Origin: Chromatiaceae bacterium
GTDB lineage: Bacteria > Pseudomonadota > Gammaproteobacteria > Chromatiales > Chromatiaceae
Direction of reading: 5' to 3'
NCBI GenBank assembly: GCA_003562815.1
Contig: PWTO01000173.1
Location: 1 to 39,258, forward strand
DNA: 39,258 nt
Below, in pieces: positions 19,174-39,258 of the stretch. Position 1 is the stretch's first letter. Every line of letters begins with the position of its first letter. The notes below the pieces were generated by a model. The model ran no database searches, had not been told where the DNA came from, and saw nothing but the letters and a program-made list of their open reading frames with translations. The position numbers were made by a program, and so were the translations under genes.

Positions 19174-19177
<4 letters not shown>
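18761..19177 (-). CDS. VanZ-family membrane protein
   Basis: 138 aa; four hydrophobic segments, [18 protein letters not shown] and [29 protein letters not shown] typical of VanZ-like domain. Overlaps ureC stop by 4 nt. Confidence 0.82.
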
Positions 19178-20786
<1,609 letters not shown>

Positions 20787-20790
<4 letters not shown>

Positions 20791-36712: not shown

Positions 36713-36798
36713 GGGATGAACGCCGACTGCATAGTATGCGCAGGCGCATACCCGATGACCGTCATTCACCGCATCATTACTTAGGAGCAGACAACGGC

Positions 36799-38532
36799 GT
36801 GGCAACGATAGAAGATGTTCTGCTTCCCGACATCGGCGATTTCACCGATGTCGAGATTATCGAGATCCTCGTCGCTCCCGGCGATCGCATCGAGCCGGAA
36901 CAGTCGCTGCTGACGCTAGAGAGCGACAAGGCGACCATGGAGATCCCCTCACCGCTGGGTGGCCAGGTCACCGAGATCAACGTCAAGGTGGGCGAGCGGG
37001 TTGGGCTCGGGCATCTGCTGCTGCGGGTGGATACCGATGCTGCCGAAAGTGGAAAGCCTTCGGTGAGTGACAGCGCATCGTCGAGCACCTCTGAAGCAGC
37101 CGAGTCTTCCGCAGCCGGCTCTGGCAATGGCGCCGTTGCTGCAACCCCAGCATCCGGCGCGCCGGACCGAACAGGCTCAACCGGGCATACCGGGGCAGCA
37201 CCAGCCGCTGACACGCCCGCGAGTGCAGCGGAACAGATTGAGGTGCCAATGCCGGACATCGGCGATTTCGCCGACATCCCGGTGGTCGAGGTGCTGGTCA
37301 GTGTCGGCGACCAGATCGAGGTCGATCAATCCATCGTCACGCTCGAAAGCGAGAAGGCGACCATGGAGATCCCCTCGCCGGCCGCCGGGACCGTCGAAGC
37401 GGTCCATGTCCAGGCGGGCGATAAGGTCAATCAGGGGGATCGGCTGCTGACGCTCATGTCCGATGCGGCTCAGGCCAGCACTCGGACCCGCACCACCGAG
37501 CCCGAGCGCCCCCAGGACACCGCTGCAACGACACCGGAAAGCCGCGCGCCCGGCGAAGCCGAGCGCCGCAAGGCCCCGGTGCTGCCCCGACCTGCGGACA
37601 TGCAGGCCATCGCCAGCGGCCGCACGGCGCATGCGAGCCCGGCCGTGCGACGCTTCGCGCGTGAACTCGGCGTCGATCTCGCCCAGGTCAAGGGCAGCGG
37701 CCGCAAGGAGCGCATCCTCAAGGACGATGTGCAGGGCTACGTCAAGAAGACCCTCTCCGCTGGTGGCCCTCCGGCTGCGGCCGGCGGCATGCCGTTCCAG
37801 CTCCCGACCGCGCCCGAGATCGATTTCAGCAAGTTCGGCGAGACCGAGACGCAGCCGCTCGCGCGCATCAAAAAGCTCAGCGGCACCCATCTGCACCGCG
37901 CCTGGCTGTCGGTGCCGCATGTCACCCAGTTCGACGAGGCCGACATCACCGAACTCGAAGCCTTCCGCAAGGGCCAGAAACAGGCCGCCGAGCAGGCCGG
38001 CGTCAAGCTCACCTTCATGCCCTTCCTGATGAAGGCCGTCGCCGGTGCGCTGGCGCAGATGCCAACCCTCAAGGCCTCGCTCTCGCCCGATGGCGACAAC
38101 CTGATCCTCAAGTACTACACCCACATCGGCGTCGCCGTCGATACACCGAATGGGCTGGTGGTACCCGTCATCCGCGATGTCGACAAGAAGGGCCTATTCG
38201 AGATCGCCGGCGAGCTGATGGCGCTCAGCGCTAAAGCGCGCGAGGGCAAGCTGCTGCCGGGCGACATGCAAGGCGGCGTGTTCAGCATCTCCAGCCTCGG
38301 CGGCATTGGCGGCACCGCCTTCACGCCGATCGTCAACGCCCCCGAGGTCGCCATCCTCGGTGTCTCGCGCACCGAGACCAAGCCGGTCTGGAATGGCGAG
38401 CGCTTCGAGCCGCGGCTGATGCTGCCGCTGTCGCTGTCCTACGATCATCGCGTGGTCGATGGCGCCGAGGGCGTGCGTTTCACGACCTTGCTCGCCAGCC
38501 TACTTGCAGATATCCGCCGGCTGCTGTTGTAA
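36799..38532 (+). CDS. aceF: Pyruvate dehydrogenase E2 (dihydrolipoamide acetyltransferase), two lipoyl domains
   Basis: Likely GTG start at 36799 with upstream GGAG; two lipoyl motifs (ESDKATMEIPSP, ESEKATMEIPSP), E3-binding domain ASPAVRRFARELGVDLAQVKGSGRKERILKDDVQGYVKK, catalytic SYDHRVVDGAEG. Confidence 0.95.
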   Translation: MATIEDVLLPDIGDFTDVEIIEILVAPGDRIEPEQSLLTLESDKATMEIPSPLGGQVTEINVKVGERVGLGHLLLRVDTDAAESGKPSVSDSASSSTSEAAESSAAGSGNGAVAATPASGAPDRTGSTGHTGAAPAADTPASAAEQIEVPMPDIGDFADIPVVEVLVSVGDQIEVDQSIVTLESEKATMEIPSPAAGTVEAVHVQAGDKVNQGDRLLTLMSDAAQASTRTRTTEPERPQDTAATTPESRAPGEAERRKAPVLPRPADMQAIASGRTAHASPAVRRFARELGVDLAQVKGSGRKERILKDDVQGYVKKTLSAGGPPAAAGGMPFQLPTAPEIDFSKFGETETQPLARIKKLSGTHLHRAWLSVPHVTQFDEADITELEAFRKGQKQAAEQAGVKLTFMPFLMKAVAGALAQMPTLKASLSPDGDNLILKYYTHIGVAVDTPNGLVVPVIRDVDKKGLFEIAGELMALSAKAREGKLLPGDMQGGVFSISSLGGIGGTAFTPIVNAPEVAILGVSRTETKPVWNGERFEPRLMLPLSLSYDHRVVDGAEGVRFTTLLASLLADIRRLLL

Positions 38533-38592: not shown

Positions 38593-38802
38593 ATGATCAG
38601 TACCATTGAAGCCGTGATCGACGAAAACGGCGCTATCGAACTTGCCGAGCCAATCAAGCTCAACGGTAAGCATCGGGCGCTGGTCACGATCCTCGATGAA
38701 CCCCCATCCGAACGCGATGAAACCCTCTGGCTATCAGAAGAAGCACTTCGACGAGATTGGCTGAGTCCCGAAGAAGACGAAGCCTGGGCGCATCTGAAGT
38801 GA
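38593..38802 (+). CDS. Antitoxin of PemK/MazF-type TA pair
   Basis: MISTIEAVIDENGAIELAEPIKLNGKHRALVTILDEPPSERDETLWLSEEALRRDWLSPEEDEAWAHLK; overlaps toxin start. Confidence 0.75.
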   Translation: MISTIEAVIDENGAIELAEPIKLNGKHRALVTILDEPPSERDETLWLSEEALRRDWLSPEEDEAWAHLK

Positions 38803-39110
38803 TCGACTACCGACCGGGTACTGTCGTACTCGTCCGCTTTCCATTTTCCGACCTATCTAGCACGAAGCGGCGCCCTGCGGTTGTTGTTGCTGATGCCGGC
38901 CGAGGCGATTGGATTTGCGCTCAAATTACTAGCAACCCGTATGCTGATCCAAATGCCGTCGAATTGAACGATAAACACTTCCGAACCGGCTCGCTCCAAC
39001 GAGTCAGTTATGTGCGGCCAGCAAAGCTGTTTACTGCTTATCATCACATCTTCGAACGTATTTTGGCCGAACTGGGTCAACTACCCCGGCCTAAAGGCCG
39101 GAGCTTGTGA
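38799..39110 (+). CDS. PemK/MazF-family toxin, C-terminus apparently replaced by mobile-element sequence
   Basis: GTG start overlapping antitoxin TGA (GTGA); IDYRPGTVVLVRFPFSDLSSTKRRPAVVVADAGRGDWICAQITSN...RVSYVRPAKLFTAYHHIFERILAELGQL then PRPKGRSL encoded by element hairpin. Confidence 0.85.
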   Translation: MIDYRPGTVVLVRFPFSDLSSTKRRPAVVVADAGRGDWICAQITSNPYADPNAVELNDKHFRTGSLQRVSYVRPAKLFTAYHHIFERILAELGQLPRPKGRSL

Positions 39111-39258
39111 AAGCAAGCTCGGTTGACCAGGGCAAGCGGTGAAAACCCGCTCCGTGCATCACAGGTCGTTAAGACCCACTCCGGGATGCTTCCTCAGTCC
39201 CGGACCCTGGAAGATCAGGATCATGCGGGCGAAAGGTAAAACGCCGAAGGTTTTGATC
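39075..39258 (+). ncRNA. Candidate HEARO / omega RNA of an IscB-type (OMEGA, IS200/IS605-related) element, truncated by window edge
   Basis: Nested stems: GGTCAAC(39075-81)/GTTGACC(39122-28); CCGGCC TAAA GGCCGG(39086-39101); GAGCTTG/CAAGCTC(39101-39120); CCAGGG(39127-32)/CCCTGG(39205-10); AGCGG/CCGCT(39135-51); GCATC/GATGC(39156-89) enclosing GGTC/GACC(39164-76); GGCG/CGCC(39228-45). Confidence 0.6.

What the first reader, a model, noticed from the sequence alone, without database searches (positions are those of the whole stretch)
39075..39258. Nested-stem RNA at the right edge resembling HEARO/omega RNA, implying an IscB (OMEGA) system just beyond the window
At least six mutually compatible inverted repeats nest in ~170 nt (coordinates in features), and the primary sequence (CCCCGGCCTAAAGGCCGG, GGTTGACCAGGG...CCCTGGAAGATCAGGATC) has the look of IS200/IS605-associated HEARO RNAs, which lie directly upstream of IscB nuclease genes on the same strand. 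No nuclease ORF is visible because the window ends.
Basis: partly seen in the sequence, partly recalled or inferred. Interest (0 to 1): 0.7.

Follow-up and report, generated by a model that had tools for sequence, protein, structure and literature searches.

The report
IscB guide RNA interrupting a toxin gene

Summary
Observation and interpretation both hold. Bases 39076-39258 match Rfam HEARO (RF02033) at 89.2 bits, E 6e-17, cut only because the contig ends there; the window is the whole contig C234. The element starts at 39076 (GTCAACTACCCC) and interrupts a PemK/MazF-type toxin gene (38799-39110) downstream of aceF. The other side is in the same assembly: contig C135 begins inside an IscB C-terminus, runs through the element's right end (...CAAGACTG|ATGA), resumes the toxin gene's missing C-terminal tail and continues into lpd. 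Two related genomes have aceF-mazEF-lpd without the element. A congener has a complete 1693-bp sister element (97% identical to the window over 183 nt) with an unbroken 448-aa IscB; by its spacing IscB would start about 100 bases past the window edge. The middle 1.27 kb of this copy is unassembled, so whether its IscB is intact is unknown. Guide use, cleavage and transposition are inferred from published OMEGA work. Verdict: new member of a known kind. Side finding: right ends of IscB-less copies sit at ATGA start codons (oxyR, galE, pheS, argS, glmU) and bring a GGAGG ribosome-binding site.

The parts
39076..39258 (+). HEARO (omega) RNA, first 183 nt of the element; 3' end cut by the contig end
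   Evidence: Rfam RF02033 89.2 bits, E 6e-17; covariation; 177/183 identical to the sister element on G005:C83
39076..39087 (+). Left end of the element (GTCAACTACCCC)
   Evidence: Host-element boundary shared by copies with unrelated left flanks
39060..39075 (+). Inferred guide: host bases directly left of the element (ATTTTGGCCGAACTGG)
   Evidence: Inference from published omega RNA organisation; guide length and use not tested
38799..39110 (+). MazF/PemK-type toxin gene interrupted by the element: native codons 38799-39075, last 10 codons and stop (39076-39110) from the element
   Evidence: Pfam PF02452; homologues continue about 20 residues further
38593..38802 (+). Partner antitoxin gene (mazE-like)
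   Evidence: No Pfam match; homologues stand next to mazF and between aceF and lpd in related genomes
36736..38532 (+). aceF, pyruvate dehydrogenase E2, the upstream landmark (downstream landmark lpd is on contig C135)
   Evidence: TIGR01348, 694 bits; lpd on C135 TIGR01350, 464 bits

Best explanation
The window ends inside an IscB (OMEGA) element of the IS200/IS605 kind that has inserted, just 5' of an ATGA tetranucleotide, into a MazF/PemK-type toxin gene between aceF and lpd. Its left end encodes a HEARO/omega RNA, and an IscB gene follows about 100 bases past the window edge. Shown: the HEARO RNA, both element ends, the interrupted gene, the far side with the IscB C-terminus on contig C135, and a complete sister element in a congener. 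Inferred from published work on the family: transcription through the left junction gives an RNA whose 5' end is copied from the host flank (about ...AUUUUGGCCGAACUGG), so the IscB complex would cut any copy of the locus that lacks the insertion and carries ATGA next to that sequence, and repair from an inserted copy would restore the element. A Y1 transposase acting in trans would move it, since none lies in the complete sister copy but several exist in the genome.
For: RF02033 match; covariation; nine HEARO matches in the genome by the Rfam model; window toxin gene truncated relative to homologues; C135 right flank resembles the missing toxin tail (score 253 vs 170 +/- 13.5 in shuffles, 0 of 2000) and leads into lpd; aceF-mazEF-lpd order without the element in G006 and G034; complete 1693-bp sister element with 448-aa IscB, RRXRR and HNH domains in this group, closest solved chains are IscB; Y1 transposases in the genome; NTGA target motif known for the related IsrB (PMC9581776).
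Against: The middle 1.27 kb of this copy is not in the assembly; other copies have frameshifted, shortened or missing IscB, so this one may be dead. The C234-C135 link is by gene order and gene content, not by reads. Guide, target motif and retention are not tested.
Confidence: 0.92

Rival explanations
1. The window copy is a short non-autonomous HEARO element without a full IscB gene, relying on IscB and transposase made elsewhere.
For: C160, C114 and C246 copies have both ends at 385, 304 and 121 bp with no IscB.
Against: C135, the far side of this insertion, contains IscB coding sequence and the IscB-type right end (CAAGACTG rather than GGAGGAACTG); the window RNA is 97% identical to the RNA of a complete IscB element.
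Confidence: 0.05
2. An IscB element is present but its IscB is broken, so the copy is a relic that keeps the RNA only.
For: IscB is frameshifted in C303, broken by foreign sequence in L061 and shortened in L071 and L079. The window RNA is intact by model score.
Against: The seen parts (RNA, 240 bases at the 3' end) show no defect and an intact near-identical sister exists.
Confidence: 0.35
3. The stems are chance or generic palindromes at an insertion sequence end with no RNA function.
For: Short palindromic ends do occur in these elements.
Against: Covariance-model score, covariation and IscB neighbours.
Confidence: 0.01

Closest known systems
HEARO RNA, Rfam RF02033 (omega RNA of IscB)
   Same: Sequence and nested structure match above the gathering score; the RNA lies 5' of IscB on the same strand in the sister copies
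   Different: No difference found beyond truncation by the contig end
IscB (OMEGA) nuclease elements of the IS200/IS605 superfamily
   Same: RRXRR and HNH domains, HEARO RNA upstream, element next to ATGA, IscB chains are the closest solved proteins
   Different: No tnpA in the complete 1693-bp sister copy; mobilisation would be in trans, and few HEARO nucleases are reported next to tnpA (PMC9755519)
IsrB (DtIsrB)
   Same: Large omega RNA, NTGA target motif (PMC9581776) like the ATGA here
   Different: IsrB lacks the HNH domain, which these proteins have

Membership tests
HEARO RNA (RF02033) | Covariance-model score above the gathering score | tested here: met
   89.2 bits against 83 in the window, although 38 model positions are cut off; 97-116 bits in complete sister copies
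HEARO RNA (RF02033) | Base pairs supported by covariation | tested here: met
   13 of 41 pairs with changes on both sides in 23 copies
IscB OMEGA element | IscB gene (RRXRR/RuvC plus HNH) directly 3' of the RNA, same strand | tested here: inconclusive
   Met in sister copies; for this copy only the C-terminal end is seen on C135, the rest is unassembled
IscB OMEGA element | Defined element ends with insertion next to a fixed target motif | tested here: met
   Left end GTCAACTACCCC, right end ...CTG|ATGA in many copies; uninserted oxyR and pheS loci in congeners carry the same ATGA
IscB OMEGA element | Y1 (IS200/IS605) transposase available | tested here: inconclusive
   Five PF01797 matches elsewhere in the genome; that one of them moves this element is untested
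IscB OMEGA element | RNA-guided, motif-dependent DNA cleavage with a guide from the left flank | not testable with these tools
   Needs transcript and cleavage assays

The most novel reading that the evidence does not exclude
In this genus the IscB-less HEARO elements act as portable ribosome-binding sites. They insert at ATGA start codons and their right end (TTTCTCGCGGAGGAACTG|ATGA) supplies GGAGG five bases before the ATG, so host genes, some essential, stay translated. In at least one case (pheS) only the element's tail is left, kept in two species in place of the native site.
Probability: 0.45. Interest if true: 0.55.

Novelty: new member of a known kind. Interest (0 to 1): 0.3.

Why it matters
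It confirms an IscB/omega RNA family spread through a gammaproteobacterial genus, with complete, frameshifted and miniature copies side by side, and gives a natural locus (mazF between aceF and lpd) where retention by guided cutting could be tested. The side finding, element ends that double as ribosome-binding sites at start codons, would explain how insertions at ATGA motifs are tolerated and is simple to test.

Tried and rejected
Non-autonomous copy: rejected for this site because C135 holds IscB coding sequence and the IscB-type right end. C71 and C106 as the far side: rejected, their right flanks are glgB and another gene start, not a mazF tail or lpd. The small frame at 39223 (MRAKGKTPKVLI) first looked like the IscB start: rejected, in complete copies IscB (MAVFVLD...) starts further on and this frame lies inside the RNA. 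The papers that first described HEARO RNAs and IscB omega RNAs (Weinberg 2009, Altae-Tran 2021) are not held, so details of them are from memory. The exact uninserted mazF allele could not be sought in the same species (one genome held).

Full report
Observation. The last 183 bases of the window match the Rfam HEARO model (RF02033) at 89.2 bits, E 6e-17, model positions 1-173 of 211, cut off only at the 3' side.

Why it stops. The window is the complete contig C234 of a 321-contig assembly. The same genome has eight other HEARO matches by the Rfam model and further fragments by DNA similarity. Repeats of this kind break short-read assemblies, and other contigs also begin or end inside the element: C101 and C119 on the left side, C71, C93, C106 and C135 on the right side.

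Where it is inserted. Left of 39076 is a PemK/MazF-like gene (Pfam PF02452, 28.1 bits). Its native codons end at 39075; ten codons and a stop then come from the element. Homologues without an element continue for about 20 more residues. On contig C135, directly right of the element's right end, one frame reads DRSMLQVRDAVIAMIAHSS..., which resembles those tails (summed alignment score 253 against 170 +/- 13.5 for 2000 shuffles, none as high; the flanks of C71 and C106 score 151-166). It is followed by lpd (TIGR01350, 464 bits). The window's other neighbour is aceF (TIGR01348, 694 bits). In G034 the order is aceF-mazE-mazF-lpd, tightly packed; in G006 it is the same with about 1.5 kb between aceF and mazE; in G005 and G007 it is aceF-mazE-lpd; in G002 and G003, and with a wider gap in G001, aceF is followed by lpd. 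C135 is therefore, with high likelihood, the other side of this insertion. C135 opens with 240 bases of IscB C-terminus and right end, 225 of 239 aligned bases identical to the G005 element.

The complete sister. G005:C83 carries a 1693-bp element: HEARO at its left end (177 of 183 identical to the window), an unbroken 448-aa IscB starting at offset 283, and the same right end followed by ATGA. IscB proteins of this group have RRXRR and HNH domains, and the closest solved chains are IscB proteins. By this spacing the window's IscB would begin near position 39358, 100 bases beyond the edge.

Mechanism. From published OMEGA work (PMC9755519; PMC9581776; and Altae-Tran 2021 from memory), the RNA's 5' end is the guide, copied from the DNA left of the element, and the nuclease needs a short motif on the far side of the target. 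Here that would be ...ATTTTGGCCGAACTGG next to ATGA, that is, the uninserted toxin allele. The likely result is that the complex cuts chromosomes that lack the insertion, so that repair restores it. These steps are inferred, not shown. Five Y1 transposase matches elsewhere in the genome could provide movement in trans; the complete sister has none inside.

Copy types. C303 has both ends and an IscB with a frameshift near the N-terminus. C160, C114 and C246 have both ends at 385, 304 and 121 bp and no IscB. L061 (G003) has an IscB broken by foreign sequence, and L071 and L079 (G011) have shortened ones.

Side finding. Right ends of the short copies read TTTCTCGCGGAGGAACTG|ATGA. Pattern searches in eight genomes gave 16 matches of this type and 5 of the IscB type. 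Two of the 16 (L140, L150) lack the right-end palindrome and are left out. Of the other 19, 16 open a frame of 60 or more codons at the ATG, against 40% of ATGA sites in the window (p 1e-4; counting the orthologous pheS pair once, p 2.5e-4). For oxyR, galE, another epimerase, glmU, argS, pheS and glgB the protein family begins near that ATG. The pheS locus shows the change directly: G002, G005 and G007 read ...agaggaaccc...aggggaaccc and ...cgaggaaccc before ATGACGCAACGC, whereas G000 and G003 have the element tail ...cgcggaggaactg up to the same ATG. For oxyR, four congeners have unrelated sequence left of the same ATGA. The background is crude (one window, open frames rather than verified genes), selection against insertion within genes would give part of the excess, the pattern itself fixed ATGA, and I do not know whether this has been described.

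Limits. The middle 1.27 kb of this copy is missing; the genome is a draft with 4% estimated contamination; there are no expression data. In one search I placed seven host bases before each of three right flanks to see the reading frame; after that I compared the two pieces of the toxin gene separately and did not rebuild it.

Noticed in passing
L141-L155, e.g. L151 (G000:C151, pheS), L153 (G000:C183, oxyR), L149 (G000:C114, galE), L146 (G007:C22, argS), L144 (G003:C26, glmU): Right ends of IscB-less HEARO elements lie exactly at start codons ATGA of real genes and carry GGAGG five bases before the ATG; at pheS only the tail is left, in two species, in place of the native ribosome site.
   Followed up: partly
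39139-39258: An open frame runs through the 3' part of the HEARO RNA to the window end; in L082 the matching frame continues without a stop into IscB, and in L064 a frame from inside the RNA does so too. Possible N-terminal extension or chance.
   Followed up: no
19174-20790: Urease alpha homologue of 538 aa (- strand), uninterrupted, yet lacking about 30 residues around the active-site flap, and reading AIDTDT, YRTEGAGGGCG and ASGSQAMGR where, from memory, active ureases have metal-binding His, His and Asp: a likely inactive urease alpha.
   Followed up: partly
20355-20640: Rfam 5_ureB_sRNA match (104 bits, + strand) lies antisense to this urease alpha gene; probably conservation of the coding sequence rather than a small RNA.
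   Followed up: partly
L183 (G005), L185 (G007): A mazE-like antitoxin gene stands between aceF and lpd without a match to the window's mazF next to it: an orphan antitoxin or one with a different partner.
   Followed up: no
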